Source: Planctomycetota bacterium
GTDB taxonomy: Bacteria; Planctomycetota; UBA1135; UBA2386
Reading direction: 5' to 3'
DNA length: 41,186 nucleotides
NCBI GenBank assembly: GCA_016235155.1
Contig: JACRLW010000107.1
Span: 66,464 to 107,649, forward strand
Of the stretch, positions 1,694-39,270 are shown in pieces. The first letter of the stretch is position 1. Each line of letters starts with the position of its first letter. Made by a program: the position numbers and the translations under genes. The notes under the pieces are model-generated. The model did not search any database. It had not been told where the DNA came from and saw only the letters and a program-made list of their open reading frames with translations.

Positions 1694-1699
1694 AGGTTA
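1694..1699 (-). promoter_or_regulatory. Start-proximal -10 box (TAACCT) of the C1 peptidase gene
   Basis: TAACCT on the reverse strand, 8 nt before the ATG at 1685. It fits the TANNNT start-proximal pattern seen repeatedly in this window. No clear -35 was found. Confidence 0.4.
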
Positions 1700-1722
1700 T
1701 CGACCCGCGCGACGCATGCGAT

Positions 1723-3405
1723 TCACTCGACGCCCTGTCCCGAGAGGATCAGGCGGTTCGCCGTGCCGGCCGCGACCGGGCGCGTGCCGTTCGGCGTCAC
1801 GAGCAGGATCTCCTGCGCGCCGTCGAGCGCGAGCGCGCCGCTCGCGCTGAGGACGGCGTCGTCCGCACCGGTCGCGGGGAAGCCGAAGATGCCGATCCCC
1901 GGCACCTCGACGACCAACGCGCGCAGTCCGAGCGCGTCGGCGAAGAACGCGCGGTAGACGCCGTTCGGCCCCATCACGCTGGTCGACAGGCGCAGTCCTG
2001 CGATCTCGGTGAACAAGGGCCGGCCGTCACTGCCGGACAGCAGGAGGTCGCCGCTCGCGGACGGAACCAGCAGATCGGCAGGGACGCGTGCGTCGGTCGA
2101 CGCGCCGCGACGGACTTCGCCGGACTGGTCGCCGCCGCGGGGCGTGATGCCGGCGGGTCCGAACTGGAACGCGTGCGGAGCCCCGCCGGTGCTCGCCGCG
2201 AGCGACGAGAGGAAGCTGCCGTCGCGGAAGGTCGTCATCGCCGACAGCACGAGCGCACCGCTCTGGTACGGCGGCGCGAGGTTGCCGCTGGTCTGCGTGA
2301 GATTCACGGTCGTCGCGGTGCCCGCGCTCGCGGCATGGAGGTCGAAGCGGCCCGGATCACCGATGCCCGCGACGAACACGGTTCCGATCGCGAGCGGCAG
2401 GATGATCACGCCGATGTACGGCTGGAAGTTGTGGTCGCCGGTCCAATGCGTCACGGGAAGCAGGCCCGCGACGTCGGCGACGAAGGTCTCGTCGCGGACG
2501 GTCGCGTCGATGCACAGGAGACGCGTGCCGTCAGCGTTGAGCAGGAGATGCGGACCACCCGTGATCTCCGGCAGGTAGCCGGGTTCCTCGTAGTCGGCGG
2601 GCGCCACCGGCACCTGCACCGACGGCCCCTGCTCGCCGACGAGCCAGATGCCGAAAGCACCGCGTGGTCCGTAGAGAAAGGCCGCGCTGCGACCGTCGGC
2701 GGCCGGGGCGAACTCGGGCTTCGCGCGCGCGCCGGCGATCACGGGCGGCGTGACCTCGATCGGGACGGCCCCGTCGCTCAACGCGATGCGCCACACGGTG
2801 TCGTTGCCGCCGACGAGCCACGCGACGTTGCGCCCGCAGGTGTGCGAGAAGTTCTCGACCCCGTTGGCGAGGGTGACGAAGCGCGCCGGCGCGGAAGTCG
2901 ACGGGTAGTCGGCGCCGTCGAGCCGCAGGATCGCAAGTCGTCCGTCGATCAGGGGCAGGATCGCGTGGCGCCCGTCGGGCGCGACCGCGATGCGATCGAA
3001 GAAGGGATCGGTGCCGCCGCCGGCGAGTCCGGCGACCTCGACCACGACGCGGGCGGCACCGGCGGCGTCGATCGAGAGGAAGCCCCAGAGGGTGCCGTTG
3101 GCCCGGCGGTAGCGGAACAGCGAGCCGCCGTCGGGGAGCACGACCCGCGCGAGCCCTTGGCGAACCGCGCGGCGCGCGACGTCGTCGGCGAGGTCCTGCT
3201 GCGCCGTGCGGTTGGTGATCTCGATCGGAAGGAACTCGACGCCGGCGAGCACGAGGCTCGGCGTCGCCGTCGGATCGCTCTCGGTCACGCGCCAGACGTC
3301 GCGCAGCAGGGGGCTGGCGCCTTCAGCCCAGACCAGATCCTGCGCAGGCGCAGGGACCGCGGCGGCGAGCGCGAGCGCGGTGAGCAGGAGCGGGCGGGAC
3401 GACAT
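1723..3405 (-). CDS. Secreted propeller-like protein of unknown function
   Basis: This 560-residue protein starts at ATG 3405 with a typical signal peptide (about 21 residues, ending VPAPAQD), so it should be exported. The rest is rich in short beta-strand-like segments with repeated Asp-Gly turns (VAPDGRH, LNADGTR, AAADGRS, GSDGRPL), as in WD40/TolB-like propellers, though I cannot define each blade. No catalytic motif, C-terminal anchor or membrane helix is visible. Two isolated cysteines, in HTCGRN and LLCIDA, could form a disulfide. It lies 37 nt upstream of the peptidase start in the same direction, but that gene appears to have its own promoter box. The upstream side is a 321-nt gap shared with the divergent kinase regulator. 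Function unknown; a surface or periplasmic binding role is only an inference. Confidence 0.75.
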   Translation of the reverse strand: MSSRPLLLTALALAAAVPAPAQDLVWAEGASPLLRDVWRVTESDPTATPSLVLAGVEFLPIEITNRTAQQDLADDVARRAVRQGLARVVLPDGGSLFRYRRANGTLWGFLSIDAAGAARVVVEVAGLAGGGTDPFFDRIAVAPDGRHAILPLIDGRLAILRLDGADYPSTSAPARFVTLANGVENFSHTCGRNVAWLVGGNDTVWRIALSDGAVPIEVTPPVIAGARAKPEFAPAADGRSAAFLYGPRGAFGIWLVGEQGPSVQVPVAPADYEEPGYLPEITGGPHLLLNADGTRLLCIDATVRDETFVADVAGLLPVTHWTGDHNFQPYIGVIILPLAIGTVFVAGIGDPGRFDLHAASAGTATTVNLTQTSGNLAPPYQSGALVLSAMTTFRDGSFLSSLAASTGGAPHAFQFGPAGITPRGGDQSGEVRRGASTDARVPADLLVPSASGDLLLSGSDGRPLFTEIAGLRLSTSVMGPNGVYRAFFADALGLRALVVEVPGIGIFGFPATGADDAVLSASGALALDGAQEILLVTPNGTRPVAAGTANRLILSGQGVE

Positions 3406-7569: not shown

Positions 7570-7576
7570 CGCGACG

Positions 7577-7617: not shown

Positions 7618-7623
7618 TATCAT
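7618..7623 (+). promoter_or_regulatory. Start-proximal -10 box (TATCAT) of the solute-binding protein gene
   Basis: TATCAT lies 10 nt before ATG 7634. It fits the TANNNT pattern and suggests a leaderless or very short-leader transcript for the downstream trio. No good -35 is visible. Confidence 0.5.
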
Positions 7624-7633
7624 CGCGGCCCTG

Positions 7634-9340
7634 ATGCGCCTCGCCGTCGCGGTCCTCGTCCTCGCGCTCGCCGGCGTCGCCGGTCTCGCGTGGCTCGTGC
7701 TGCGGCACTCGCCGGCGCCCGCGACGACGACCGACGTCACGCTCGGCCCGCGCGCGCGACCGCAAGGCGATCTCTGGCGCAGCGGCGTGCCGCCGATCCC
7801 GTCGCTCAACGTGTTCACGACGCGTGACGCCGTCGCGGTGCGCCTCGTCCTCGCCTACACGCACGAGACGCTCGTCGATCGCGACCCGTGGACCGGCGAA
7901 CTGCGCGCCGGCGCGGCGCGGGCCTGGCGGGTCGACGACGACGGCCGCACCTGGATCTTCGACCTGCGCGACGACCTGCGCTTCGCCGACGGTGCGCCGG
8001 TCACGCGCGAGGACGTCGAGTTCACGTTGCGCGCGGCACGCGATCCACGCGTCGAACCGAAGAGCGACATGAGCGCGGCGCTGGCGTCGCTCGAGTCGGC
8101 GGTACTCCGCGGCGAGCGCGAGCTCGTGTTGGTTGCGAAGGAACCCGACGGACAACTGCCGCTCCGCATCGCCGCCGAAGTGCGCATCGCGCAGATCGCC
8201 TTCTTTTCCGCCGAGATCCGCTCGCGCGCCGAAGACGCGACGCCCTGGGACGACGCCTGGACGCAGGCACTCGCCGAAGCGGCGTGGTCCGGGCCGGGCA
8301 CCGGTCCCTACGCGGTCCGCCGTCGCGACGACGGTTCGCCGGACTGGTCGCGCGGCGAGTACCTCGACCTCGTCGCAAACGCACACGGCTGGCAGCGAAG
8401 CGCCCGCGCGACCTCGTGGAACCTCGCCGGCTTCCGGCTGCTGTTCCTTCCCGACGAGTCGGCGCGCCTCGCGGCGTTGAAGCGCGGCGAAATCGACTGG
8501 TTCACGTCGACGAGCGGTGAAGACCTCGCAGCACTCCGCGCCGGGGATCCCCTGCTCGCGCGCGCGTACCGCGTGTTCGCGTACGACCCGCCCCACATGG
8601 GTCATCTGCAGGTCGTCTGGAACTGCCGCCGGCCTGCGCTCGACAAGGCCTCGGTGCGCCGCGCGCTCGGCCTGCTGTTCGACCGCGCGACGATCTGCCG
8701 CGAGGTCTTCGGCGGCGCCGCGGCGATAACGCGCGGGTGGTTCAAGCCGGGCATGCCCGAGTACCCCGCCGCGGAGGAAGCGCCGCGCTTCTCGATCGCC
8801 GAGGCGAAGGCTCTGCTCGCCGCGGAGGGCTTCGGCCCGAACCGCGTGCCCTTGCGCGTCGAGGTGCTGTGCGCGAGCGAGGCGCAGATGCTCCGCAGGA
8901 CGGCAGAGCTCGCGCTCGCGTCGTTCCGCGAGGCCGGCGTCGAACTCGTGCCGGTACCCGGTGACTGGGCCAGCGTCTACGCGCGACTGACGTCGCACGA
9001 CTTCGACGGCGTGCTGATGCTCCAGTACCACGACCCGGTGATCGACCCGCACGACGTCTTCGCGCGCGACGACAACGACATGGGCTGGCGCAACGACCAG
9101 GCCGAGTCGCTCCTGCTCGCAGCGCAGCGCGAACCGGAGCGCGCGGCCCGCGCGAAGCTCTACTTGGAGTTCCAGGACCTGCTCGCCGCCGAACAACCCG
9201 TCACGCTCCTGGTCCATCCCCTCACGCAGGTCCTCGTGCACGCGCGCTTCCAGGACGCGGAGCCCGGACCTCTCGGACTCTCGCCCGAGCGGTTCTGGGT
9301 CGCACCCGAGGAACGCATCGCCGGAGCCGCGCCGAAGTGA
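7634..9340 (+). CDS. Extracellular solute-binding protein, family 5 (peptide/oligopeptide type)
   Basis: This 568-residue protein resembles DppA/OppA-type binding proteins (SBP_bac_5). Typical features are the N-terminal segment ending in YTHETLVDRD, then RTWIFDLRDDLRFADGAPVT with V-x-FTL, and a later region with ALGLLFDRATI and FKPGMPEY. The first 24 residues form a hydrophobic helix followed by RHSP, with no lipobox Cys, so it is either a cleaved secreted protein or membrane-anchored. No permease or ATPase gene is adjacent, so it is an orphan binding component. The stop overlaps the next start as GTGA, so translation of the serine hydrolase is probably coupled. Together they suggest capture and hydrolysis of a peptide or related extracellular compound, which is inference. 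Confidence 0.85.
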   Translation: MRLAVAVLVLALAGVAGLAWLVLRHSPAPATTTDVTLGPRARPQGDLWRSGVPPIPSLNVFTTRDAVAVRLVLAYTHETLVDRDPWTGELRAGAARAWRVDDDGRTWIFDLRDDLRFADGAPVTREDVEFTLRAARDPRVEPKSDMSAALASLESAVLRGERELVLVAKEPDGQLPLRIAAEVRIAQIAFFSAEIRSRAEDATPWDDAWTQALAEAAWSGPGTGPYAVRRRDDGSPDWSRGEYLDLVANAHGWQRSARATSWNLAGFRLLFLPDESARLAALKRGEIDWFTSTSGEDLAALRAGDPLLARAYRVFAYDPPHMGHLQVVWNCRRPALDKASVRRALGLLFDRATICREVFGGAAAITRGWFKPGMPEYPAAEEAPRFSIAEAKALLAAEGFGPNRVPLRVEVLCASEAQMLRRTAELALASFREAGVELVPVPGDWASVYARLTSHDFDGVLMLQYHDPVIDPHDVFARDDNDMGWRNDQAESLLLAAQREPERAARAKLYLEFQDLLAAEQPVTLLVHPLTQVLVHARFQDAEPGPLGLSPERFWVAPEERIAGAAPK

Positions 9341-12749: not shown

Positions 12750-13448
12750 TCAACCGAGGAACGAGAGCTCGCATCCCGTCGCGAGTTCGCGTGCGAACTC
12801 CCCTCGTTGGAACAGCCGCGCCGAACGCGGACCGTGCAAGGTCGTGCGGGCACCCGCGACGCGGATCATCCCACCCTCGCGCAGCCCGAGGACCGCGACG
12901 TGGTTCTCCTCGTGGAACTCGCGGATGCGTTGCTCGCGCGTCTCGCCCATGTGCGTCGAGCCGCGTTCGGGATCGAGGTAGTGCGGGTTGATCTGGAACG
13001 GCAGTAGTCCGAGCGCGACGAAGCTCGGCGGCGCGACGATCGGCATGTCGTTCGTCGTCTTGATCGTCGGGCACGCCACGTTCGTCCCCGCGCTCGCGCC
13101 GGCGTACGGCATCCCGGCGCGAACTCGCGCGCGAAGCGGATCGATCAGCCCGCGTCGCCAGAGTTGGTCGAGCAGGCGGAAGGTGTTGCCGCCGCCGACG
13201 AACACGCCGTCCGCGGACGCCAGCGCAGCGATCGGGTCCGCGAAGTCATGGAGGCCACGGCAGTCGTGACCCATCGCGGCGAACGCAGTGCGGGCGCGTG
13301 CCGCGTACGCGTCGTGATCCGCGAGCGCGAACGGCACGAACAGCAGCGATCGGCGTCCCGGGCCGAACAGTTCGACGAGGGCATCGCGACAGTGCTCGAG
13401 GTAGCCGCCGCCGAACTGCGTGGAGTTGCTGACGAGGAGGAGGTTCAT
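12750..13448 (-). CDS. pepE: Peptidase E (alpha-aspartyl dipeptidase, S51)
   Basis: This 232-residue protein is a cytoplasmic dipeptidase cleaving Asp-X dipeptides. It has the S51 signature: nucleophile Ser119 in GASAGTNVA, Asp134 in TTNDMPI and His156 in INPHYLDP. These sit exactly one residue before the Ser120-Asp135-His157 triad of the E. coli enzyme, with similar total length. The segment FVGGGNTFRLL is also typical. It starts at ATG 13448, which overlaps the stop of dus (ATGA), so the two are translationally coupled. The functional link between the tRNA-modifying enzyme and the dipeptidase is not obvious; the pairing may be simple co-transcription. Confidence 0.92.
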   Translation of the reverse strand: MNLLLVSNSTQFGGGYLEHCRDALVELFGPGRRSLLFVPFALADHDAYAARARTAFAAMGHDCRGLHDFADPIAALASADGVFVGGGNTFRLLDQLWRRGLIDPLRARVRAGMPYAGASAGTNVACPTIKTTNDMPIVAPPSFVALGLLPFQINPHYLDPERGSTHMGETREQRIREFHEENHVAVLGLREGGMIRVAGARTTLHGPRSARLFQRGEFARELATGCELSFLG

Positions 13449-14551
13449 GGACCGGCGGAGTTGCTCGCCTCGCGCACGCGCTGCGCGGCGAGCGCGAAGG
13501 ATGACAAGCGAGCGGACCGTTCTCCGGCGCGCGACGCCGGGTACAGCGAATCGAGGACGGCCAGCAGGTCGTCGACCGTTCGTGCGGCGACGAACGCGTC
13601 GCGGACCGCGACGGGATCGGGATGCACCGCCGCATGGTGGATCGCCTGCGTGCGGGCGCGCGCGGGGCCGCCGCGCGCGCCGAACAACCGCATGGTGAGT
13701 TCGATGTGCCGCGCGATCGCGACGCGTTGTTCGCCGATCGTCGGCGCCTGCGGTTCCAGACCCGCCGCGAGCGCGGCGACTTGCGCGAAGATCCAGGGGT
13801 TGCCGATCGCGCCCCGCGCGAGCGTGACGCCGTCGACGCCGGTGGTCGCGAGCATCCGCGCGACGTCGTGCGGTCCGAACAGGTCGCCGCTGCCGAGCAA
13901 GGTGCACGAGCCCATGCGGTCCCGCACGCGACGCAGGAAGGACCAGTCCGAGGCGCCGTCGTAGCGCTGCGCGACGGTCCGCGGGTGGATCGTCGCCGCC
14001 GCGATGCCGCGGGCGAACGCACCGTCGAGGATCGCGAAGAACGCGCGCTCCGACTCGATCTTGTCGTCGAGTCCTCTTCGCAGCTTGACCGTCACCGGGC
14101 GTGCGCCGCCGACCGCATCGAGGACGCGATCGACGACCTCGAGCGCGAGGTCGGGCGTTCCCAGGAGGAATCCGCCGCGGCAGCGACCGAGCACCTTCGG
14201 CACCGGGCAACCGAAGTTGATGTCGATCACGTCGTATCCCGCTCCGACCATCGCGCGAGCCGCCGCGGCGAACGACGCCGGCTCCGACCCCATCAACTGC
14301 CCGCCGATCGGATGGTCGTCCTCGTCGAGTTCGAGCACGCGCCTCGCGAGTCGCCCGCCGGCGAGCACGTCGCGATCGAGGACGACCTCGTGAACGCAGT
14401 AGGGCGCGCCGTGCTCGCGTGCGACGCGGCGCATCGCGGCGTCGCTGTAGCCGCTGAGCGCCGCGAGCACCGCGCGACCAGGGATCGCGACGGAGCCGAT
14501 GGCGAAGCCCCCGGCGAGCTTCGTGGCGAGGCGCGTGTCGGGTGCTTGCAA
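13445..14551 (-). CDS. dus: tRNA-dihydrouridine synthase
   Basis: This 368-residue FMN enzyme reduces uridine to dihydrouridine in tRNA. Key features are the catalytic Cys115 in INFGCPVPKV, Lys156 in VTVKLRRG, the substrate-contact segment HPRTVAQRYDG and the FMN-binding GSGDLF and ARGAIGNPWI motifs. The order and spacing fit the DusB/Dus1 branch. The frame stays open far upstream, so the start must be chosen: TTG 14551 gives a natural N-terminus ahead of the barrel and has a TAGCAT box 8 nt upstream, just as other genes here have. No ATG or GTG lies nearby in frame. Its stop overlaps the pepE start. The gene diverges from a zinc-ribbon gene, and the two -10 boxes overlap. Confidence 0.92.
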   Translation of the reverse strand: MQAPDTRLATKLAGGFAIGSVAIPGRAVLAALSGYSDAAMRRVAREHGAPYCVHEVVLDRDVLAGGRLARRVLELDEDDHPIGGQLMGSEPASFAAAARAMVGAGYDVIDINFGCPVPKVLGRCRGGFLLGTPDLALEVVDRVLDAVGGARPVTVKLRRGLDDKIESERAFFAILDGAFARGIAAATIHPRTVAQRYDGASDWSFLRRVRDRMGSCTLLGSGDLFGPHDVARMLATTGVDGVTLARGAIGNPWIFAQVAALAAGLEPQAPTIGEQRVAIARHIELTMRLFGARGGPARARTQAIHHAAVHPDPVAVRDAFVAARTVDDLLAVLDSLYPASRAGERSARLSSFALAAQRVREASNSAGP

Positions 14552-14559: not shown

Positions 14560-14565
14560 ATGCTA
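14560..14565 (-). promoter_or_regulatory. Start-proximal -10 box (TAGCAT) of dus
   Basis: TAGCAT on the reverse strand, 8 nt before the TTG start at 14551. It overlaps by 2 nt the TATCGT box facing the other way, so the two divergent promoters probably compete. Confidence 0.5.
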
Positions 14566-21158: not shown

Positions 21159-21200
21159 TTCAGCTCCGAAACTTCAGCTCCGTGACTTCAGCTCCGTGAC
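21159..21200. repeat. 14-bp tandem repeat, three units, crossing a stop codon
   Basis: Three consecutive 14-bp units of TTCAGCTCCGWRAC lie at 21159-21172, 21173-21186 and 21187-21200; the first differs at two bases from the identical second and third. The last unit covers the stop codon (21188-21190) and final codons of the reverse-strand membrane-protein gene. Because 14 is not a multiple of 3, unit gain or loss would shift the reading frame at the end of that gene. Confidence 0.75.
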
Positions 21201-21811
21201 TCCGCGACGGGAGTCTGCCGCTCTTCGCGGTGGGCTCCCGTCGCCTTTTCGTCCGCCTCGAGCGCGGGCGCATCCGCGGGAGGCGGCGGCCGATCGGCGA
21301 GTTCGCGTTCGATCAGGTCGCGGAACCGATCGTCGCGATCGAGCCGGCGCGCCGCGACGAGCTGGCGTCGCGCGGGTCCGTGCATGCCGCCGGCGCGGAA
21401 CACCTTCGCGAGCAGGAGCCGTGAGCGGAGGTCCCAGGGATCGACGCGCAGAACCGCGAGCAGTTCGCGTCGCGCGGGATCGAACTCGCCGCGCAACCAG
21501 TTGGTGAACGCGGTGTGGAACGCGACGTCGCGGCGCGCGACGAAGTCCTTGCGCGATCGGCGCCAGCGACCCGCGATCAACCGCAGCGTCACGATCACCG
21601 TCCATGACTGGAGCACGATCAACGCGCCGGCGTAGACCGGCCCGACGTCGTCGAGCGCGAAGCGAGCGACCAGCGCGGAGTCGGCGGCGAGCCAGGTCGC
21701 GACGATCGTCGCGATGCCGGTGCGGACGAGACCGGTGCTCAGGTAGATCCATGCGACGACCTGGGCGACGACGAAGATCGCGAGGTTCGGCAGGAACGCG
21801 TCCGCAAACAT
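21188..21811 (-). CDS. Membrane protein with TPR-like C-terminal segment
   Basis: This 207-residue protein has about three hydrophobic segments in the N-terminal half: residues about 7-27 (LAIFVVAQVVAWIYLSTGL), 30-45 and 58-78 (AGALIVLQSWTVIVTLRLIAG). After a basic loop (RWRRSRKDFVARRD) comes a helical hairpin region (about 95-160: FHTAFTNWLRGEFDPARREL, LRSRLLLAKVFRAGGMHGPARRQL) resembling one and a half TPR units, facing the cytoplasm. The tail is Pro/Glu-rich. ATG 21811 is preceded 8 nt upstream by a TATCAT box. The stop codon lies inside a 14-bp tandem repeat. It diverges from thiE. Function unknown; a TPR suggests a protein partner. Confidence 0.75.
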   Translation of the reverse strand: MFADAFLPNLAIFVVAQVVAWIYLSTGLVRTGIATIVATWLAADSALVARFALDDVGPVYAGALIVLQSWTVIVTLRLIAGRWRRSRKDFVARRDVAFHTAFTNWLRGEFDPARRELLAVLRVDPWDLRSRLLLAKVFRAGGMHGPARRQLVAARRLDRDDRFRDLIERELADRPPPPADAPALEADEKATGAHREERQTPVAESRS

Positions 21812-21819: not shown

Positions 21820-21825
21820 ATGATA
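21820..21825 (-). promoter_or_regulatory. Start-proximal -10 box (TATCAT) of the membrane-TPR gene
   Basis: TATCAT on the reverse strand, 8 nt before ATG 21811; the same hexamer lies ahead of the solute-binding protein gene. Only 42 nt separate this gene from the divergent thiE. Confidence 0.5.
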
Positions 21826-22608: not shown

Positions 22609-23682
22609 TCAGACCAGCAGCATCGCGTCGCCGTAGCTGAAGAAGCGGTAGCCGCGCTCGATCGCCTCGCGATAGAGCCGCAGCACGCGCTCGCGCCCGC
22701 AGAACGCGGCGACGAGCATCAGCAGCGTCGAGCCGGGCAGGTGGAAGTTGGTCAGCAGAGCGTCGACGACCCGCAGCGGGCGGCCCGGAAAGAGGAACAG
22801 CTCGGTCGAGCCGCTGCCCGCAGCGACCGTGCGGTCGTCGCGCGCGCAGGTCTCGAGCACCCGCGCGGCGGTCGTGCCGACGGCGACGACACGGCCGCCC
22901 CGTGCGCGCGTCGCGGCGATCGCCGTCGCGGTCGCCGCGGGCAACTCGTACCGCTCCCGGTGCATGCGGTGATCCTCGACGCGATCGACGCGCAGCGGCG
23001 CGAAGGTCCCTTCGCCGACGTGCAAGGTGTCGAACGCCGACCCGATGCCGCGCTCCGCGAGCCGCGCGAGCAGCTCGCCGGCAAAGTGCAGGCCCGCGGT
23101 CGGCGCCGCAACCGCACCGGGCACCCGCGCGAACACGGTCTGGTAGCGCGCGCGATCGACGCCCGCGTCGTCGCCGTCGGGGCGGCGGATGTACGGCGGG
23201 AGCGGCGCGCGCCCGACGGCCTCGATCACCGCGGTGAGATCGCCGCCGCGCGGTGCCCGGAGCGCGAAACGGAACAGCCCCCCGCCGAGCGCCGCGAGGG
23301 GCACGAGTTCGAGCGCACCACCCTCGAGGCCGATCGGCTCGTTGATCCGCAGCTTGCGCGCGGGCTTCAGGTAGCCGCGGCCGTGGTCGCCGTCGCGCGA
23401 GAGGATCAGCACCTCGACGCGCGCACCGCTGGGCAGTCGACCGACCAGGCGATGCGGCAGGACGCGCGTGTCGTTGAGGACGAGCAGATCGCCCGGCCGC
23501 AACAGCTCCGGCAGATCGCGCACGAAGCGGTGCTCGCTCCGATCCAGGGCCCGCTCGTGCACGAACAGCCGCGCCGCGTCGCGCGGCTCCACCGGCGCCG
23601 ACGCGATGCGATCGGCGGGCAACTCGTAATGGAAGTCGGCGACGCGCACGGAGCCGCGCGCTTGTACCGTCTCGCCCGACAT
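22609..23682 (-). CDS. queA: S-adenosylmethionine:tRNA ribosyltransferase-isomerase
   Basis: This enzyme moves the ribosyl part of SAM onto the 7-aminomethyl-7-deazaguanine base in tRNA to form epoxyqueuosine. The sequence has the family's VADFHYELPADRIA, LLVLNDTRVLPHRL, AAPTAGLHFAGELL, LHVGEGTFAPLR, HRERYEL, VGTTAARVLE, LFLFPGRPLRVVDALLTNFHLPGSTLLML and the end RFFSYGDAML. The ATG at 23682 gives 357 residues, but the family begins at a point equivalent to VRVADF. GTG 23649 is the better start: it leaves a 31-nt promoter space shared with the divergent lipoprotein gene, whereas ATG 23682 would overlap that gene's own ATG. With queG about 1.8 kb away, the final queuosine steps are covered here. 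Confidence 0.95.
   Translation of the reverse strand: MSGETVQARGSVRVADFHYELPADRIASAPVEPRDAARLFVHERALDRSEHRFVRDLPELLRPGDLLVLNDTRVLPHRLVGRLPSGARVEVLILSRDGDHGRGYLKPARKLRINEPIGLEGGALELVPLAALGGGLFRFALRAPRGGDLTAVIEAVGRAPLPPYIRRPDGDDAGVDRARYQTVFARVPGAVAAPTAGLHFAGELLARLAERGIGSAFDTLHVGEGTFAPLRVDRVEDHRMHRERYELPAATATAIAATRARGGRVVAVGTTAARVLETCARDDRTVAAGSGSTELFLFPGRPLRVVDALLTNFHLPGSTLLMLVAAFCGRERVLRLYREAIERGYRFFSYGDAMLLV
23665..23670 (+). promoter_or_regulatory. Start-proximal -10 box (TACCGT) of the propeller lipoprotein gene
   Basis: TACCGT lies 10 nt before ATG 23681. The box falls inside the apparent 5' end of queA if queA begins at 23682, which supports the later queA start at 23649. Confidence 0.5.
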
Positions 23683-25047
23683 GCGCCACCTCGTGCCCGC
23701 CGTCGTCGCGACCCTCGTCCTCTGGCCGGCGGCGGCGTGCTCCGGCGGCGGACAGCGCGGCGCAGGTCTGCCGCTGCAACCGGGAACCGCGCGCGCCGAA
23801 CTCGTCGTCGGTCGAGCGCGGATCGGTTTCGAACACGCGACCAGTGCGGTGCTCGGCCTCTCCGCCGACGGCCCAACGGGGAACCGACGAGCGACGAGTT
23901 GTTCGTCGCGCGCGTCGATCGAAGCACCGACGAAGTCCGTCTCACCGACGACGACGCCGTCGACGACGCCCCGTGCTGGTCGCCCGACGGCACGCGCCTC
24001 GCGTTCGCGAGCGAGCGGCTCGGCAACGGCCCGCGGCTGTTCTTGGTCGACGCCGCCCTGGGCTCACCGGCGCAAATCTGGAACGACGCCGCGGACCAGA
24101 CCGATCCCGATTGGTCACCCGCCGCGGGGCGGATCGTCTTCGCGCGCCGCGGAGCTCTTGCCCGCTTCGAACTCTGGACCATCGCGCCCGACGGCACGTC
24201 GCCCATCGCCCTGACCGACGGCGGAGCTGGCGCCGGTGATCGCGAACCGTGCTGGAGTGCGGACGGCAGCACGGTGGTCTTCGTGCGCTGGCTCGACGCG
24301 ACGCGCTCGACGCTGGCCCGCGTCGACGTCGCCACGTCCCAGGTCACGCTGCTCGCGGCCCCGGTCACGACCGCTCGCTTCCCGCGGTTCGCACCGCGCG
24401 GCGATCGGATCTTTTTCGCGGGCAGCGACCCGTCCGCGGGCGTCGACACGCTGCGCCTCTGGGTCGGCCGTGCCGACGCGAGCGAGGCGCTGCTGCTGAT
24501 CGCCGACGATCGCGAAGCCGTGACCGGCCTCGACTGCGCCGCGGATCTCCCCGCCGCCTCGACCGCGCCGCGCGCGTGGTCGCCGGTGCGCCTGGACGGT
24601 GCGCGCGTCTCCAACCTGCAGGGGCGTCGCACCGGCGGCTCGTACGACGCGATCCTCGCCGAGGGCGGCGCCGAGCTCGCGATCGAGACCGTCGAGCAGG
24701 GCGAACGGCAGATCGGCGGGCTCGAGCTGACCGTCCCGCTCGGCGTCGAGCCGCGGCGCGTCGCCGCGATCGAGGTCACGGTGCGCGCCGCGATCACGGA
24801 CCGCGACCCGACGACGCGCCTGCGCGCGACGCTCGCCGACTACGTGAGCGAGCGGCATGCGACCCACGTGCACGCGACGCCGAGCTCGGACGCGTTCGCC
24901 GTCTGGACCTGGCGCGCCGCGGGGCCGCGCTGCGTCGACCGCCGCGGCGACCTGCGCGTGTCGGTCGTCGCGGATCGCGCGGCCGGCGGCACGGCGACGC
25001 TGCACCTCGACCATGTCGGCGTGCGCGTGCTGATCGAATCGCCGTGA
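23681..25047 (+). pseudogene. PD40/TolB-type propeller lipoprotein, frameshifted
   Basis: A lipoprotein with a WD40-like (PD40) propeller. The N-terminal frame from ATG 23681 has a signal peptide and lipobox (LWPAAAC, Cys20) and stays coding to about 23870 (VLGLSADG). Then it turns into an Arg/Ser-rich shadow frame, while the +1 frame takes over with NGEPTSDELFVARVD and continues to 25047. PD40 repeats are clear: CWSPDGTRLAFASER, DWSPAAGRIVFARR, CWSADGSTVVFVR and PRFAPRGDRIFFAG. A C-terminal beta-sandwich-like domain follows (about 320-455). One missing C in the CCC run at about 23873-23875 explains the break, giving about 455 residues. A sequence error is likely. The gene ends 19 nt before the DASS transporter. 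Confidence 0.8.
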
Positions 25048-25051: not shown

Positions 25052-25057
25052 TATCGT
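25052..25057 (+). promoter_or_regulatory. Start-proximal -10 box (TATCGT) of the DASS transporter gene
   Basis: TATCGTGCGCCC lies between two same-strand genes only 19 nt apart; the box ends 9 nt before ATG 25067. The same 12-mer occurs at 14564. This suggests the transporter has its own start of transcription rather than depending on read-through. Confidence 0.55.
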
Positions 25058-25066: not shown

Positions 25067-26458
25067 ATGCGAGCGCGCACGGGTTTGCTGATCGCCGGGC
25101 CGGTCCTCGCGATCGCGGTCGCGGTGCTCTGCGCGTGGAACGGACTCGCGACGCCGGCCGCATGGACCGCGGCGGTCGCGGTGCTCTGCGCATGGTGGTG
25201 GGTCACCGAGGCGATCCCGCTGCCCGCGACCTCGCTGCTTCCCTTCGTGCTGTTGCCGGCGGGCGGCGTCCTCGACGCGAGAGTCGTCGCGCGCGATCTC
25301 GGCGATCCGCTGATCCTGCTGATGCTCGGGGGCTTCCTGCTCGGCAAGGGCGTCGAGCGCAGCGGCGCTCATCGACGCATCGCCGTCACGATGGTCCGTG
25401 CCTTCGGTCGCTTCGGCCGGCGCGGACTCGTGCTCGGCTTCATGGTGGCGACCGCGTTCTGTTCGATGTGGATGTCGAACAGCGCGACCGCGCTGATGAT
25501 GCTGCCCGTCGTCCTCGCGGTGCTCGATCACGAGAAGGGCGACGATCTCGCGGTGCCGCTGCTGCTCGGCGTCGCCTATGCCGCGAGCATCGGCGGCGTC
25601 GGCACGCCGGTCGGGACGCCGCCGAACCCGATCTGCCTGCGCGCCTACCGCGACGCGACCGGCGAGACGATCGGCTTCCTGCGGTGGATGAGCTTCGGCG
25701 TGCCGCTGATGCTGCTCCTGCTGCCCTGCGCGTGGTGGATCGTCGTGCGAAAGGTCGTCCCCGGGCCTGCCGCCCAAGTATCGCCGGCCGGCGCGTGGCA
25801 GCGGGCCGAGCGCCGCATGCTCGTCGTGTTCGGCCTGACCGTCCTCGCCTGGCTGACGCGCAAGCTCCCGTTCGCCGGGGGCGGTTGGAGCGCGTGGCTC
25901 GGCGTCGAAGGCGTGGGCGACGAGACCGTCGCGCTCGCGGCGGCGGTCGTGGTGCTCGCGCTGCCGCACGGCGATCGGCCGGGTGAGCGACTCCTCGACT
26001 GGAAGAGCGCGGCGTCGATCCCCTGGGACATCCTCCTGCTGTTCGCAGGCGGCATCGCGATCGGCTCGGCCTTCGACGCCTCGGGCCTCTCGAAGAGCCT
26101 CGGCGACCATCTCGTTGCGCTCCGCGACCTGCCGCTGTGGCTCCTGATCGCGATCATCGCGGCGACGGTCACGCTCCTGTCCGAGCTCGCGAGCAACACC
26201 GCGATCGCCAATCTGCTGATGCCGGTGCTCGCGGCGGCGGCGACCGAGACCGGGATCGACCCGCTCGTGCTGTTGGTGCCCGCGACCCTCGCCGCGAGTT
26301 CGGGCTTCATGCTCCCGATCGCGACGCCGCCGAACGCGATCGTCTACGGCTCGGGACGCGTCCCCGTCCGCTCGATGCTGCGCGCCGGATTCGCGCTCGA
26401 CGTCGCGGGGGTGGTCGCGATCACCGTCGTCGCGCGGTTCGTGCTGATCCCGGCCTGA
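25067..26458 (+). CDS. DASS/SLC13-family sodium:anion (dicarboxylate/sulfate) symporter
   Basis: This 463-residue protein has about 11-12 membrane helices. The family's twin substrate/sodium motifs are present: MSNSATALMMLPV in the first half (near residue 138) and LASNTAIANLLMPV in the second (near 380), with the SNT/SNS loops that bind Na+ and carboxylate. Also typical are WWVTEAIPLPATSLLPF and GGVGTPVGTPPNPI, and the end LPIATPPNAIVYGSG. It should import di- or tricarboxylates or sulfate with sodium; the sequence does not settle the substrate. It follows a propeller lipoprotein by 19 nt but has a promoter box right at its start. A perfect 19-bp palindrome lies 28 nt after its stop. Confidence 0.92.
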   Translation: MRARTGLLIAGPVLAIAVAVLCAWNGLATPAAWTAAVAVLCAWWWVTEAIPLPATSLLPFVLLPAGGVLDARVVARDLGDPLILLMLGGFLLGKGVERSGAHRRIAVTMVRAFGRFGRRGLVLGFMVATAFCSMWMSNSATALMMLPVVLAVLDHEKGDDLAVPLLLGVAYAASIGGVGTPVGTPPNPICLRAYRDATGETIGFLRWMSFGVPLMLLLLPCAWWIVVRKVVPGPAAQVSPAGAWQRAERRMLVVFGLTVLAWLTRKLPFAGGGWSAWLGVEGVGDETVALAAAVVVLALPHGDRPGERLLDWKSAASIPWDILLLFAGGIAIGSAFDASGLSKSLGDHLVALRDLPLWLLIAIIAATVTLLSELASNTAIANLLMPVLAAAATETGIDPLVLLVPATLAASSGFMLPIATPPNAIVYGSGRVPVRSMLRAGFALDVAGVVAITVVARFVLIPA

Positions 26459-27139: not shown

Positions 27140-27145
27140 TATCCT
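27140..27145 (+). promoter_or_regulatory. Start-proximal -10 box (TATCCT) of the GT2 gene
   Basis: TATCCTGCGCCC lies 10 nt before ATG 27156. It fits the TANNNT-GCGCCC pattern and would drive the GT2-DUF2304-dehydrogenase unit as a leaderless message. Confidence 0.5.
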
Positions 27146-27155: not shown

Positions 27156-27920
27156 ATGTCCGGCCCCAGGGATCTCATCCAGTCCGTCGTCGTGATCGTG
27201 CCCGCCCGCAACGAAGCGGATCGGATCGGCGCCGTGCTGGATGCCGTCCGCCGCGCGGCGCCGGCCGCGCGGATCGCGGTGATCGACGACGGCAGCGAGG
27301 ACGACACCGGCGCGGTCGCGCGCGCGCACGGCGCACAGGTCCTCCGCCACCCCTTCACCCTCGGCTATGGCGCGGCGCTCCAGACCGGCTACCACTGGGC
27401 GCTCCGGCAGCGCTTCACGCGACTCGTGCAACTCGACGCCGACGGCCAACACGACCCGGCCTCGATCCCGTCGCTCCTCGCGGCGCTCGACGCCGGCGCG
27501 CAGCTCGTGCTCGGCTCGCGCTACCTCGATCCCGCGACCACGCCGCGCACGTCGTTCGCACGCCGCATGGGCTCGCGCTTCTTCGCGTTCGTCGTCTCGC
27601 GTTGGACCGGCACGCGCATCACCGACCCGACGTCCGGCTACCAGGCGATGGACCGGCGCGTCGTCGAACGGCTCGCGCTCGACGACTTCCCCGAGGACTT
27701 CCCCGACTCCGACGTCCTGATCGCGCTCGCGCGCGAGGGCGTCCGGTTCGCGGAGGTGCCGGTGCAGATGCGCGAGCGGCTCGGCGGCGTGAGCATGCAC
27801 CGCGGCGGACGCATCGCGTACTACGCCTACAAGATGGCGCTGACCCTGAGCCTCCTCCCCGTGCGACGCTCGTCGCCGTTCCGCGCGGGACGTGAACTCG
27901 CGCGCGCGGGAGCGGATTGA
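27156..27920 (+). CDS. Family 2 glycosyltransferase (dolichol/polyprenyl-phosphate mannosyltransferase-like)
   Basis: This 254-residue enzyme has the GT-A fold: VVVIVPARNEADRI at the N-terminus, VIDDGSEDDT, QLDADGQHDP (the DxD-type metal site) and later DPTSGYQAMDRRVV, the characteristic end region of DPM1/GtrB-like transferases. It transfers a sugar from a nucleotide sugar to a polyprenyl phosphate. There are no strong membrane helices; the hydrophobic end segment (MALTLSLLP) is short. I chose ATG 27156 over an upstream TTG-type frame because a TATCCT box sits 10 nt before it. Its stop overlaps the next start (TGATG). Pairing with a DUF2304 membrane protein is a known arrangement, and suggests a membrane-linked glycosylation step. 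Confidence 0.93.
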   Translation: MSGPRDLIQSVVVIVPARNEADRIGAVLDAVRRAAPAARIAVIDDGSEDDTGAVARAHGAQVLRHPFTLGYGAALQTGYHWALRQRFTRLVQLDADGQHDPASIPSLLAALDAGAQLVLGSRYLDPATTPRTSFARRMGSRFFAFVVSRWTGTRITDPTSGYQAMDRRVVERLALDDFPEDFPDSDVLIALAREGVRFAEVPVQMRERLGGVSMHRGGRIAYYAYKMALTLSLLPVRRSSPFRAGRELARAGAD

Positions 27921-31268: not shown

Positions 31269-31296
31269 TTGCCTGATCACCGCGACCATCTACCCT
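31269..31296 (+). promoter_or_regulatory. Promoter (TTGCCT-16-TACCCT) of the secreted-protein gene
   Basis: -35-like TTGCCT (31269-31274) and -10-like TACCCT (31291-31296) have a 16-nt spacer; the -10 ends 10 nt before ATG 31307. The box is followed by GGCGCCCCGC, similar to the other start-proximal boxes. Confidence 0.5.
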
Positions 31297-31306: not shown

Positions 31307-32347
31307 ATGAAACTCCCCGCAGCCGCGCTCGCGATGCTCGCTCTCGCCAGCGGCGCACTCGCCCAGCTCCCCACCGTCCTCCCCGCGGGCAACGACCTCA
31401 CCTTCGCCGGCAACAACGGCACGGGTGTCGGCTACGCCGCGAACAAGGGCATCTCGCAGAACCTCTACATCGCTCCGTTCGCGCCGCTCTTCATCAGCGC
31501 GGTCGGCTTTCGGCGCACGGCGACGACCACCGACTTCGCCGCGCAGTCGATCGACTTCGAGATCACGCTGTCCAGCACGACGGCGGACCTCACGACGCTG
31601 AGCGCGACCTTCGCGAACAACCTCGGCGCCGACCAGGCGGTCACCTTCCCGCGGACCCTGGTCTCGATCCCCGCCGCGCCCGCGAACCTCAGCCCGAACG
31701 ACTTCGTCGTGATGCCGGGCCAGGCGCCGTGGTTGTTCGGCATCGCCGGTCCGAACCTGCTGGTGCAGTGCAAGTCGTACGGGCCCGGCACCAACGTCAA
31801 CGCCTGGCGCATGGATCGCTGCTTCGAGCGCACGACCGCGGGCGAAGCGATCTCCTGGGGCCGCTCGTGCTCGACCGCGACGATCAACTCCTCGAGCACG
31901 GCGCCGAGCTACCTGCCGGGCAGCACGCTGACCTTCAGCCTCGCCGCGGCGGCGCCGAACCAACTCGCCTTCGCCGCTTTCGGCTTCGATCAGACCAACG
32001 CCGGCGGACTGCCGCTGCCCGCCGACCTGGGACCCTTCGGCATGACGGGCTGCACCCTGCTCGTCTCGCTCGACGCGATGTTCCAGACCATGACCGACGC
32101 CGCCGGCGCCGCGTCGATCCAACTCCCGATCCCGTCCTCGTCGGGTCTCAGCGGCCTGGGCTTCGGCATGCAGTGGATCCACGGCGATCCGAACGCCGGC
32201 AATCCGCTCGGCCTCGTCTCGACGGCCGGCCGCCTCTTCCACGTCGGACCGCTGATCTGCGCCAACCGCTACGTCTACAACCTCAGCAACGAGGCGAGCG
32301 CGACGGGCACGCTGCAGGCGGGCGGTCCGGTCGTGAAGGTCTACTGA
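31307..32347 (+). CDS. Secreted protein with a planctomycete-type C-terminal domain
   Basis: This 346-residue protein has a signal peptide (MLALASGALAQ, cleaved near 19). The middle (about 25-215) is a beta-rich domain of unknown type. The C-terminal part has GLPLPADLGPFGMTGCTLLVSLDA, then TDAAGAASIQLPIPSSSGLSGLGFGMQW and DPNAGNPLGLVSTAGR. I recognise this as a C-terminal module common in secreted proteins of deep-branching, GC-rich planctomycetes (pattern LP-DL-PFG-x-GC, then ASI-LPIP), but cannot cite a family number. It is probably surface-exposed. There is no anchor. The start has the promoter pattern TTGCCT-16-TACCCT, 10 nt away. A hairpin 18 nt after the stop may end transcription. Confidence 0.8.
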   Translation: MKLPAAALAMLALASGALAQLPTVLPAGNDLTFAGNNGTGVGYAANKGISQNLYIAPFAPLFISAVGFRRTATTTDFAAQSIDFEITLSSTTADLTTLSATFANNLGADQAVTFPRTLVSIPAAPANLSPNDFVVMPGQAPWLFGIAGPNLLVQCKSYGPGTNVNAWRMDRCFERTTAGEAISWGRSCSTATINSSSTAPSYLPGSTLTFSLAAAAPNQLAFAAFGFDQTNAGGLPLPADLGPFGMTGCTLLVSLDAMFQTMTDAAGAASIQLPIPSSSGLSGLGFGMQWIHGDPNAGNPLGLVSTAGRLFHVGPLICANRYVYNLSNEASATGTLQAGGPVVKVY

Positions 32348-34445: not shown

Positions 34446-34450
34446 GAGGA

Positions 34451-34499: not shown

Positions 34500-34509
34500 G
34501 CCAGCAAGT

Positions 34510-34582
34510 TGGGCCGTGCTGGATTCGAACCAGCGACTTCGACCTTGTGACGATCGCACTCTACCAACTGAGTTAACGGCCC
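34510..34582 (-). tRNA. tRNA-Val (anticodon CAC)
   Basis: On the reverse strand the 7-bp acceptor stem GGGCCGT/ACGGCCC is perfect. The D arm is ACTC-AGTTGGTA-GAGT, the anticodon stem CGATC/GGTCG closes the loop GTCACAA (U33, CAC at 34-36, A37), the variable loop is AAGTC, and the T arm is GCTGG-TTCGAAT-CCAGC. The discriminator is A, followed by ACTTGC, so CCA is not encoded. CAC decodes GUG valine. Confidence 0.93.
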
Positions 34583-37800: not shown

Positions 37801-38119
37801 CTGGCGCACCCTGATCGTCGCGGTGCTCGCGTTCCTCGCCGTGCTCGCGGTCGGGCTCACCGTCGCGATCAAGCGCCAGCGACGCCGTCGCCAGGGCGAG
37901 AGCTGGGCCGCGATGGCGCGTCAGTCGGCCGGACCCGCGCCACAGAACCGAGGGCGCCTCCGCCCCCGCTACGAGGACTACGAACCGGAGTACCGTCCTG
38001 CCGAGAACTGGGACGCCGAGATCAAGCGCGGCGAGGAGGACGAATGGCCGGTCGACGAGGAAGTCCCGCCCCCCTCCGAGGCGACGTGGCAGGAAGAGCA
38101 GGACGGCGCGCAGCGCTGA
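34820..38119 (+). CDS. Giant membrane-anchored protein with pilin-like and HEAT-repeat regions
   Basis: This 1099-residue exported protein is preceded by a short hydrophobic segment (ALLTTIALLAATVSPQ) that may serve as a signal. Residues about 30-560 are a large beta/alpha region (MPADTLFAAELRP, VAIAWFDVTGM, MLVAASSERQLRRWLG) that loosely resembles DUF3352-type proteins. Residues about 565-675 (VLAALQFAETRWFEQHKVYADVDALIAGG, then TGEVFAVSDEQPPMRNE) look like the C-terminal part of a pilin/pseudopilin. Residues about 725-970 contain HEAT repeats (ARAVYALGKLRSSQAVPRII, QQAIKALTNLGDRRSVQA, KLAAANLGRLKAAEAKDELV). One membrane helix is near 997-1018, followed by RQRRRRQ and an acidic cytoplasmic tail. 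I chose ATG 34820; upstream open frame reads through the tRNA flank and is non-coding. Function unknown. Confidence 0.78.
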   Translation: MDMALLTTIALLAATVSPQDPERASTEPFRHAASMPADTLFAAELRPQAGFRDELEPTRFWAAFQEQLDQPTCRDLLATLRAPLSGREGEGIRATDLIAHGVSIAITAPDRTGAPGVLAIAEIGDLASKLATALDDRTAQGRSGIERRDRPGTSAWHVAVGRQPFVIALAGTTLIVASPPDRLDKALQNRAGQSAESLASNARFRQFSRHVGTRLGATEVAIAWFDVTGMVEQGLAEAPAAIRENAKRWLARIGLDGLGGVGITVGAERGVVRERVLVSTNGPRGTLLDALFPQGGQLGLDAATLAPRDVASFFAIETDLKTAYSEILRILDGAEPKLAEELRRFVRASGQQLGVDVETDLLYQLGHRVAAMQWPATDSTSTGEWLYVIDVERSERVADVLTRLPMFESSKLGAYDMLLQRNGGVGLAVGRGMLVAASSERQLRRWLGDQRVPTPHAEVRAALSQLTEGGIGCGWVNPRPLMTETRRAIDAAGAVAPGAAIARRIVSHASTTLSPLTWSLYSNPLGFTAQFESSSGFIAELAVAVLVGIAEEAAADPMLARLLDATRSSEDLRSVHATQVLAALQFAETRWFEQHKVYADVDALIAGGLIGADMFDGPRGPGILGLGDSLVTVLLVPGDTPHWVGVIWPADRHTGEVFAVSDEQPPMRNELVARSRGIATPMLRDVFNRGDVGAGLTPGWRVIDLGSDTETSAPAVAGSGERATLGIIAALEKRGPSAAAEIVRYLDSESPHIVSRAVYALGKLRSSQAVPRIIELATKHESVDVRQQAIKALTNLGDRRSVQASMHLLADPDATVRKLAAANLGRLKAAEAKDELVALIARASRDPAADEDGAAALLALGEIGDATVLLRAAGSTGGSGKKTEEALVWMFQTLAPKVGADEEPKTLMAVLDHTSTLLRRFAIQRLGELKDPRAAAALESRLGVENDQLRPLVEVSLSAIRGGTAGENTGVAGLARRAMDSTQSAVSSIWNDPRWRTLIVAVLAFLAVLAVGLTVAIKRQRRRRQGESWAAMARQSAGPAPQNRGRLRPRYEDYEPEYRPAENWDAEIKRGEEDEWPVDEEVPPPSEATWQEEQDGAQR

Positions 38120-39270
38120 TCCTCGGCGCGGCGATCGCGACGCAGCTCGCGAGCGCGCAGGAGGCGCGCCTCGCGGTGCGATTCGCCGCCGACGCCGAGC
38201 ACCGCGGTCCCGCGGGTTGGACCTTCGTCCGTGAGCACGCGCTGCCGGCGTTGAGCGACGGACTCGACGATCCGTTCGCGGCGCTGCGCGTGACGATCGA
38301 CGAACACGGCAAGGTCAAGGTCGAGCGCGACGACCGGAGCGACGCCCCGGAGGACCCGTCCTACCTCCGCTTCGAACTGGTCGCGGGCGGCCGGATCGTC
38401 GCGACCGGCACCTGCGATCACGTCGGACGCGAGACCTGGTTCGTGCGTGGCGACCTTCATCGCGACGTCCTGCCGCCGCCGCTCCGCACGCTCGGCGATC
38501 GCTTCGCCTACGAAGCGACGACCGGTTGGCTCACCCTCGACCTGCCCGCCGCGACCGGCAACCTGATGGCGGGCAGCGCTGAAGGCGATCTCGCGAGCGC
38601 GATGCTCACGATCGGCACCGCGGAGTGCGGGACCGTCGCGTTGTTCGCGCGCCGCGGCGACGACGGCACCTGGCGCGTCGACGGCCGCAGCGATGCGGGT
38701 CTCCTGCTGCCCGCGATCCTCCTTTCGCTCGCCGACTTCCAGTCGGGACGGCTCGACGCCGACGACGCACGCGGTCTCGCCGACGACCTCGATCGCTGGC
38801 TCCTGCTCGCCGCGTCCGCGGCGCGCGAGGAACAGGAGGAAGCCGCGCGCCAGCTCGGCCGCTTCCGCGATCCGCGCGCGATCGCGACCCTCGAACGCCT
38901 GCTGCGCGCCGACGGACCGCTGCGCGAGATCGCGATGCACGGGCTCGTGCGTCAGGGCGCCCTGCGCTCGCTCGGCTCGATCGTCGCCGCGGCCGATCCT
39001 GCGCGGCCGAACTCGGTCGCGCTCGCCGCGCTCGCGATCTGGACGCTCGCGCCGCGGCCGGTTGCCGAGGAACTGATCGCGAGCCTGCCCGGGCAGCCTG
39101 CGCCGCGCATCGCGGAACTGCGCACCACGACCGACACCGCATGGGACGCCGTCCTCGTCGCGCTCGGAGCGATCGCGATCGCGTCGGCGATCGGACTCTT
39201 CGTGTTGCACGGCCGGTACCGCAGGGTTCCACGAGTCGGGCCACGCGCGGCTACCGTGCCGCCCTCGTGA
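38044..39270 (+). CDS. Exported HEAT-like membrane protein, second of a pair
   Basis: This 408-residue protein starts at ATG 38044, inside the previous gene (76-bp overlap). GTG 38086 would shorten the overlap and give the more typical signal peptide AGRRAALILGAAIATQLASAQ. After the signal is a beta-rich domain (about 40-200: LRVTIDEHGKVKVERDD, GRETWFVRGDLHRDVLPP). A helical HEAT-like region follows (about 250-350: REEQEEAARQLGRFRDPRAI, LREIAMHGLVRQGALRSL). A single C-terminal helix (about 368-388, ALGAIAIASAIGLFVLH) is followed by a basic tail. Overall layout parallels the larger upstream gene product: exported region, HEAT, anchor, basic tail. The pair probably acts together. No known family recognised. 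Confidence 0.78.
   Translation: MAGRRGSPAPLRGDVAGRAGRRAALILGAAIATQLASAQEARLAVRFAADAEHRGPAGWTFVREHALPALSDGLDDPFAALRVTIDEHGKVKVERDDRSDAPEDPSYLRFELVAGGRIVATGTCDHVGRETWFVRGDLHRDVLPPPLRTLGDRFAYEATTGWLTLDLPAATGNLMAGSAEGDLASAMLTIGTAECGTVALFARRGDDGTWRVDGRSDAGLLLPAILLSLADFQSGRLDADDARGLADDLDRWLLLAASAAREEQEEAARQLGRFRDPRAIATLERLLRADGPLREIAMHGLVRQGALRSLGSIVAAADPARPNSVALAALAIWTLAPRPVAEELIASLPGQPAPRIAELRTTTDTAWDAVLVALGAIAIASAIGLFVLHGRYRRVPRVGPRAATVPPS
39252..39257 (+). promoter_or_regulatory. Start-proximal -10 box (TACCGT) of the DUF2911-like gene
   Basis: TACCGT lies 9 nt before GTG 39267, inside the 3' end of the preceding gene. Same hexamer as before the lipoprotein gene at 23665. Confidence 0.45.

What the first reader, a model, noticed from the sequence alone, without database searches (positions are those of the whole stretch)
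1694..39269. TANNNT boxes 8-10 nt before start codons: likely leaderless transcription across the window
Seen directly: exact TANNNT boxes end 8-10 nt before the start codon in nine genes, at 1694 (TAACCT), 7618 (TATCAT), 14560 (TAGCAT), 21820 (TATCAT), 23665 (TACCGT), 25052 (TATCGT), 27140 (TATCCT), 31291 (TACCCT) and 39252 (TACCGT). gmhA has the close variant TATCTC at the same distance. Several are followed by GCGCCC-like bases. A recognisable Shine-Dalgarno was noticed only at hsp20. In other bacteria such as Deinococcus and Actinobacteria, a -10 box directly before the start codon marks leaderless mRNAs, because the transcription start then falls at or within a few bases of the AUG. If this lineage uses leaderless genes widely, the motif also helps choose start codons.
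Basis: partly seen in the sequence, partly recalled or inferred. Interest (0 to 1): 0.75.

Follow-up and report, generated by a model that had tools for sequence, protein, structure and literature searches.

The report
Predicted leaderless-gene promoters in planctomycetes
In this bacterium, likely a planctomycete, a TANNNT box sits 8-10 bases before the start codon of nine genes in the window and is far more frequent than chance at that spot in the fifth of its genome that was examined, and it likely acts as a promoter that would give messenger RNAs with almost no leader before the gene.

Summary
All nine boxes are present, 8-10 nt before a start codon; three belong to minus-strand genes. In 1.14 of 5.34 Mb, 50 of 586 operon-first starts carry the exact box at gap 6-10 (8.1 expected from flanks, 3.9 from shuffles), against 5 of 232 operon-internal starts, where Shine-Dalgarno (SD) words are enriched instead. 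TA...T topped an open pattern scan of operon-first starts and was not among the patterns listed for decoy starts. None of the 50 boxed genes has a strict SD, and A is depleted in the last six bases (10/300 vs 435/3216). Boxes reach 12 of 40 starts in divergent spacers of 20-70 nt. Annotation-free counts show an excess in 50 of 119 phylum genomes. Best reading: -10 boxes that likely start transcription at or just before the start codon of a minority of genes (roughly 9%). The kind is known; the searches made listed no report of it for Planctomycetota. The gap, mostly 8-10 nt, exceeds the 6-7 nt of Deinococcus. No 5' ends are mapped, and the two boxes tested are mostly not conserved between genera.

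The parts
1694..1699 (-). TAACCT box, 8 nt before ATG at 1685 of a papain-like peptidase gene (594-1685, minus)
   Evidence: Pfam Peptidase_C1_2 just under its cut-off
594..1685 (-). gene behind box 1694; N-terminus looks like a signal peptide (read by eye)
7618..7623 (+). TATCAT box, 10 nt before ATG at 7634 (solute-binding protein gene 7634-9340)
14560..14565 (-). TAGCAT box, 8 nt before TTG at 14551 (Dus tRNA-dihydrouridine synthase gene 13445-14551)
   Evidence: of 20 family orthologs examined none has a box at the aligned start and one has a TANNNT before a codon 42 nt further in
21820..21825 (-). TATCAT box, 8 nt before ATG at 21811 (gene 21188-21811, no Pfam match)
23665..23670 (+). TACCGT box, 10 nt before ATG at 23681 (lipoprotein-like N-terminus; ORF 23681-24214, with coding sequence continuing in another frame in 23899-25047)
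25052..25057 (+). TATCGT box, 9 nt before ATG at 25067 (CitMHS-type transporter gene 25067-26458)
   Evidence: one of 7 alignable family orthologs (G007) has TACAAT 6 nt before the aligned ATG
27140..27145 (+). TATCCT box, 10 nt before ATG at 27156 (glycosyltransferase family 2 gene 27156-27920)
31291..31296 (+). TACCCT box, 10 nt before ATG at 31307 (gene 31307-32347, no Pfam match, signal-peptide-like N-terminus)
39252..39257 (+). TACCGT box, 9 nt before GTG at 39267 (gene 39267-40250); lies inside the upstream ORF 38086-39270

Best explanation
The TANNNT boxes are likely -10 promoter elements read by a sigma70-type RNA polymerase and are predicted to start transcription at, or within about four bases upstream of, the start codon, giving leaderless or near-leaderless mRNAs for a minority of operon-first genes. 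Shown by sequence: only the exact T1-A2-T6 form is enriched; it sits 6-10 nt before the start codon, and none of 586 operon-first starts has it at gap 5; it is concentrated at operon-first genes and in short divergent spacers; boxed genes carry no strict SD; the spacer is depleted of A. Inferred: that the box is a working promoter, that the 5' end is the A/G of the start codon or just before it, that ribosomes start directly on this 5'-terminal start codon, and that operon-internal genes are translated with the help of SD and the retained anti-SD.
For:: among all three-base gapped patterns at 577 operon-first starts, TA...T at -15 ranks first (43 vs 6.6, about 1e-20); GGA and AGG rank first at 227 operon-internal starts; for decoy in-frame (546) and out-of-frame (480) starts TA...T is not among the 6 and 4 patterns listed, the best of which reach only 1e-6.6; 50 at 586 first starts vs 8.1 expected; D. 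deserti plasmid 12 at 95 vs 2.0; E. coli 4 at 83 vs 6.3; of TA...T and nine one-position variants only TA...T is enriched; 0/50 boxed genes have a strict SD vs 43/536; A in the last 6 nt 10/300 vs 435/3216 (1e-8; 58/300 in control genes with a distant TANNNT); ATG 40/50 vs 338/536 (p 0.02); annotation-free TANNNT-Ng-ATG counts peak at g 8-10 (18, 24, 18 vs mean 6.9); box frequency falls with divergent spacer length, 12/40, 5/48, 3/56, 3/96 (12/40 vs 11/200, p 3e-5); two pairs 31 and 57 nt apart have boxes both ways; excess over the gap-21 control in 50 of 119 phylum genomes, none in the reverse direction; two matches to sigma70 region 1.2; 16S genes of two family members keep CCTCC.
Against: No 5' end is mapped. 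The gap peaks at 8-9 nt in called genes and 8-10 in ATG counts, longer than the 6-7 nt reported for D. radiodurans, so leaders of 1-4 nt are possible. At divergent starts alone TA...T ranks fourth, behind C-rich patterns next to the start. The box fills part of the stretch in which SD was sought. Boxes tested for conservation mostly fail: dus 0 of 20 at the aligned start, CitMHS gene 1 of 7 alignable. In relatives the trend with divergent spacer length is weaker (7/20, 7/34, 10/44, 8/66). By the tool's own control (pattern read backwards) this genome shows no excess at gap 9 (79 vs 87) or gap 6 (53 vs 95); that control is also higher at gap 21 (74 vs 37), so its base rate differs and I compare gaps instead; the gap-6 excess of this genome alone is not significant (p 0.06). 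The -35 signal is weak. Unconstrained motif EM did not return TANNNT, and a mixture model seeded with ATNNNT converged on another weak motif with nearly equal likelihood. My sample is richer than the whole genome (24 gap-9 sites in 1.14 Mb vs 79 in 5.34 Mb). 2 of the 9 window boxes are at operon-internal starts (25067, 39267).
Confidence: 0.82

Rival explanations
1. The boxes are ordinary -10 elements but the true translation start lies further downstream, so the mRNAs have a short leader and the box position relative to the listed start is incidental.
For: Start codons are predicted; the coding-score starts and the box-based starts disagree at two of the nine (1685, 23681).
Against: Predicted N-termini directly after several boxes look like signal peptides or a lipoprotein signal (read by eye); in called first genes the box occurs at gaps 6-10 and not at 5; A is nearly absent from the spacer up to the listed start.
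Confidence: 0.08
2. TAA/TAG stop codons of upstream genes followed by short spacers mimic TANNNT before starts.
For: 17 TAG and 4 TAA among 50 boxes.
Against: 29 of 50 boxes begin TAT or TAC; boxes are rarer at operon-internal starts, where upstream stop codons are nearest (5/232 vs 50/586); they are most frequent in short divergent spacers, where the neighbouring gene lies on the other strand (12/40).
Confidence: 0.02
3. An A/T-rich ribosome-binding element (for example for ribosomal protein S1) rather than a promoter.
For: Given as an alternative to leaderless mRNA for A/T bias before non-SD genes (PMC5397173, passages).
Against: Only the T-A-three free-T form is enriched, not its near variants; the spacer is GC-rich and poor in A and T.
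Confidence: 0.06

Closest known systems
Leaderless genes with TAnnnT -10 signal in Actinobacteria and Deinococcus-Thermus (Zheng et al. 2011, PMC3160421; passages and section 7 seen)
   Same: High-GC genomes, TAnnnT with free middle bases; the paper links SD to operon-distal genes, as seen here
   Different: Planctomycetes are not in its list of groups with leaderless genes (section 7); the fraction here (roughly 9%) is below its ~20% and ~40%
-10-motif adjacent to ORFs in Deinococcus radiodurans (PMC12340547; sections 7 and 11 and passages seen)
   Same: TANNNT with T1, A2, T6 nearly invariant; second motif GGAG
   Different: There about 6-7 bp before the ORF, in nearly a third of genes, tested with reporters; here mostly 8-10 nt, in a minority, untested
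Mycobacterial leaderless transcriptome (PMC3898074; passages seen)
   Same: TANNNT -10, no clear -35, leaderless genes beside SD genes
   Different: 5' ends mapped there, not here

Membership tests
Leaderless-gene -10 (TANNNT) promoters | T1, A2 and T6 required, middle three free | tested here: met
   Of TA...T and nine one-position variants only TA...T is enriched at gap 6-10
Leaderless-gene -10 (TANNNT) promoters | Fixed position just before the start codon, beyond chance | tested here: met
   50/586 vs 8.1; shuffles 3.9
Leaderless-gene -10 (TANNNT) promoters | Box ends 6-7 nt before the ORF, as in D. radiodurans | tested here: inconclusive
   Gaps 6 to 10: 9, 7, 13, 14, 7 in called first genes; ATG counts peak at 8-10; 47 of the 50 phylum genomes with an excess favour 6 over 9, this one does not
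Leaderless-gene -10 (TANNNT) promoters | Boxed genes lack SD and are mainly operon-first; distal genes use SD | tested here: met
   0/50 boxed with strict SD; boxes 50/586 first vs 5/232 internal; SD 43/586 first vs 56/232 internal
Leaderless-gene -10 (TANNNT) promoters | Mapped 5' end at or within a few nt of the start codon | not testable with these tools
   No transcript data
Leaderless-gene -10 (TANNNT) promoters | Box drives transcription in a reporter | not testable with these tools
   Needs bench work
sigma70 promoters | -35 hexamer about 17 nt upstream of the -10 | tested here: inconclusive
   TTG beginning at -26..-21 from the box: 9 vs 2.7 in 109 aligned boxes, picked post hoc from all 3- and 4-mers

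The most novel reading that the evidence does not exclude
Leaderless expression is a phylum-scale, patchy trait of Planctomycetota, and the lineage of this window uses a stretched form in which the -10 box has moved to 8-10 nt from the start codon while transcription still begins at the AUG, allowing back-to-back leaderless promoters in divergent spacers as short as about 30 nt.
Probability: 0.35. Interest if true: 0.62.

Novelty: new member of a known kind. Interest (0 to 1): 0.48.

Why it matters
Planctomycetes have been described as having few SD genes, with leaderless mRNA and/or S1 suggested as the alternative from a single species (PMC5397173, passages). A sequence signal that marks promoter and start codon at once could improve start annotation in uncultured genomes of the phylum, explain part of the missing SD, and make gain and loss of leaderless initiation testable inside one phylum, where some families show the excess and others do not (f35 4/4, f30 5/5, f63 3/3 with; f32 0/5, f49 0/4, f34 0/3 without).

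Tried and rejected
Unconstrained ZOOPS motif discovery returned a low-information TCG motif, not TANNNT (log-likelihood 272 vs 225-239 in six shuffles); base composition dominates, so I used a positional pattern scan. A mixture model that re-picks starts gave a box at 40% of divergent genes; rejected as inflated, because its box matrix has only 5 bits and an ATNNNT control seed reached nearly the same likelihood with another motif (TTNNNA also went elsewhere), although TNANNT, CANNNT and TANNNG seeds converged on the same box. Ortholog footprinting was mostly negative; I examined 20 of the 30 other family genomes for dus and 14 for the CitMHS gene, and 7 of those 14 gave no alignment to the 120-residue N-terminal query and were dropped. 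No 16S was found in this MAG, so the anti-SD was read in relatives. My first gene caller found no genes in two relatives of lower GC (G012, G024); seeding was changed. The annotation-free count shows nothing in the known leaderless species at lower GC: D. deserti plasmid 115 vs 113. The tool's reversed-pattern control was set aside because its base rate differs from the pattern's at every gap; by it alone this genome shows no excess. One genome counted as significant, G141, has a ratio of only 1.07; 45 of 119 have a significant excess with a ratio of at least 1.5.

Full report
Observation. Three of them (1694, 14560, 21820) are read on the minus strand. The gap from box end to start codon is 8, 10, 8, 8, 10, 9, 10, 10 and 9 nt. 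The genes behind them are a papain-like peptidase (just under the Pfam cut-off), a solute-binding protein, a Dus enzyme, an unmatched protein, a lipoprotein-like ORF, a CitMHS transporter, a family 2 glycosyltransferase, an unmatched protein with a signal-peptide-like start, and a protein with a sub-threshold DUF2911 match (signal peptides read by eye). With a gene caller of my own that picks starts from coding score only, 7 of 35 window starts have a box at gap 6-10. Dinucleotide shuffles average 0.28, and none of 2000 reaches 7. The starts 1685 and 23681 are not the coding-score starts.

Lineage. The window lies in a 5.34-Mb, 152-contig genome.

Genome-wide test. I took 1.12-1.14 Mb (21%) of the genome as stretches. 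In 816 complete starts, 48 boxes begin at -17..-13 against 8.6 expected from the upstream flanks. An open scan of all three-base gapped patterns puts TA...T at -15 first among 577 operon-first starts (43 vs 6.6, about 1e-20), closely followed by C-rich patterns next to the start; at divergent starts alone TA...T is fourth behind such patterns. SD words lead at 227 operon-internal starts. For decoy in-frame starts (546) and out-of-frame ATG/GTG (480) the six and four best patterns listed do not include TA...T. In the final gene set, 50 of 586 first starts have the box (8.1 expected from flanks, 3.9 from shuffles), and 5 of 232 internal starts (0.4 expected from flanks). Without the window it is 45 of 562. 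Only the exact TA...T pattern is enriched; CA, GA, AA, TG, TC and TT with T at position 6, and TA with C, G or A at position 6, are not.

Independent marks of a transcription start beside the start codon. None of 50 boxed genes has a strict SD word in -18..-5 (43 of 536 unboxed first genes do), though the box itself fills part of that stretch. A makes up 10 of 300 bases in the last six before the start, against 435 of 3216 in unboxed first genes and 58 of 300 in control genes with a TANNNT further up. ATG is the start in 40 of 50 against 338 of 536. In the 21 genes with gap 9-10 there is no purine excess at -3 or -4, where a canonical spacing would put the first base (0.33 at both, vs 0.51 and 0.46 in unboxed genes); A is nearly absent up to the start codon. 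This favours starting at the AUG with a long discriminator, though G starts giving 1-4 nt leaders remain possible. The box is commoner the shorter a divergent spacer is: 12 of 40 starts at 20-70 nt, 5 of 48 at 70-120, 3 of 56 at 120-200, 3 of 96 beyond, and 0 of 6 below 20 (12/40 vs 11/200 p 3e-5). In nine relatives pooled the trend is weaker (7/20, 7/34, 10/44, 8/66). Two pairs in this genome, 31 and 57 nt apart, and three in relatives (32, 36 and 137 nt) carry boxes in both directions.

Mixed system. Strict SD words occur at 56 of 232 internal starts and 43 of 586 first starts (p 3e-10). The 16S genes of two family members keep CCTCC. Two matches to sigma70 region 1.2 are present. A -35 signal is at best weak.

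Annotation-free counts. TANNNT-Ng-ATG in the held sequence peaks at g 8-10 (18, 24, 18 against a mean of 6.9 at g 16-39). Summing the excess over gaps 6-11 for ATG (90 vs 41) and 6-9 for GTG (61 vs 34) gives about 75 sites per 872 genes, roughly 9%; the gap ranges were chosen after seeing the data. In whole genomes, gap 6, gap 9 and control gap 21 were counted in 119 genomes drawn from the phylum. 50 of 119 (27 of 66 sampled families) have a significant excess at gap 6 or 9 (47 at gap 6, 10 at gap 9), and none shows the reverse. Several families are uniform: f35 4/4, f30 5/5, f63 3/3, f21 3/3, f10 3/3 with; f32 0/5, f49 0/4, f23 0/4, f34 0/3, f18 0/3 without; others are mixed, such as f17 2/6. 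The test has more power where background is low (36 of 47 genomes with under 40 control sites per Mb, 14 of 72 others). This genome has 53 at gap 6, 79 at gap 9 and 37 at gap 21; its gap-9 excess is significant (6e-5), its gap-6 excess is not (0.06), and it is one of three significant genomes that have more at 9 than at 6. The tool's own control, the pattern read backwards, gives 87 at gap 9, 95 at gap 6 and 74 at gap 21 for this genome; by it there is no excess, but it is about twice the forward pattern at the neutral gap 21 too, so I rely on the comparison between gaps.

Controls. D. deserti plasmid 1, from a species with reported leaderless genes, gives 12 at 95 first starts (2.0 expected, peak at gap 6); E. 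coli gives 4 at 83 (6.3 expected); the phylum genome G122 gives 0 at 58 (1.2 expected). Relatives with a clear signal include G025 14/47 (0.9), G149 15/60 (1.7), G099 10/44 (0.7), G030 8/45 (1.1) and the same-genus G001 6/34 (0.3); weak or absent in G018 4/71 (1.6), G010 2/43 (0.8), G015 2/43 (0.4), G027 1/32 (0.7) and G065 3/44 (0.7) (66-140 kb each, 67 kb for G027).

Results against. The Dus box has no counterpart at the aligned start in the 20 family orthologs examined (1 of 20 has a TANNNT before a codon 42 nt further in). For the CitMHS gene 1 of 7 alignable orthologs has a box at the aligned start and 1 more before an internal TTG. Box turnover between genera is therefore high, or those boxes are chance. 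The held sample is richer than the whole genome (24 gap-9 sites in 1.14 Mb; 79 in 5.34 Mb). Two motif-model attempts were unsatisfactory.

Literature. Zheng 2011 lists the groups with leaderless genes among 953 bacterial genomes and does not name Planctomycetes (PMC3160421, section 7; no occurrence of the word in its main text). Nakagawa 2017 examined one planctomycete and suggested leaderless mRNA and/or S1 (PMC5397173, passages). The Deinococcus-Thermus paper of 2025 scanned common phyla, but its text does not name Planctomycetes; its Figure S7 could not be seen (PMC12340547). Searches for leaderless with planctomycet (15 papers) or Planctomycetota (2 papers), and for planctomycet with dRNA-seq and transcription start site (1 paper), listed no report of such a system by title and start of abstract. 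I opened passages of two of the 15 papers (PMC5397173, PMC10783764); the latter is also one of the two. For GeneMarkS-2 with leaderless, 58 papers were found and 12 listed; none was opened. Papers outside that open library were not searched.

Conclusion.

Noticed in passing
window 23681-25047: A lipoprotein-like N-terminus (ORF 23681-24214) is followed by the rest of a likely gene in another frame (23899-25047): an apparent frameshift, real or from assembly.
   Followed up: partly
window 23680-23683: The ATG at 23681 (plus) and the called ATG of the Queuosine_synth gene 22609-23682 (minus) overlap in CATG, so the box at 23665 would lie inside the called minus-strand gene; its start may be further in, since the Pfam match begins at residue 15.
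   Followed up: no
L060 1518-1550 and L007 10976-11034: Divergent gene pairs 31 and 57 nt apart with TANNNT boxes facing both ways: compact two-way promoter candidates.
   Followed up: partly
G000, G039, G061 whole genomes: These three have more boxes at gap 9 than at gap 6, unlike the other 47 genomes with an excess.
   Followed up: partly
window 34510-34582: tRNA-Val (cac) gene on the minus strand, the only match to an RNA family at gathering score in the window.
   Followed up: no
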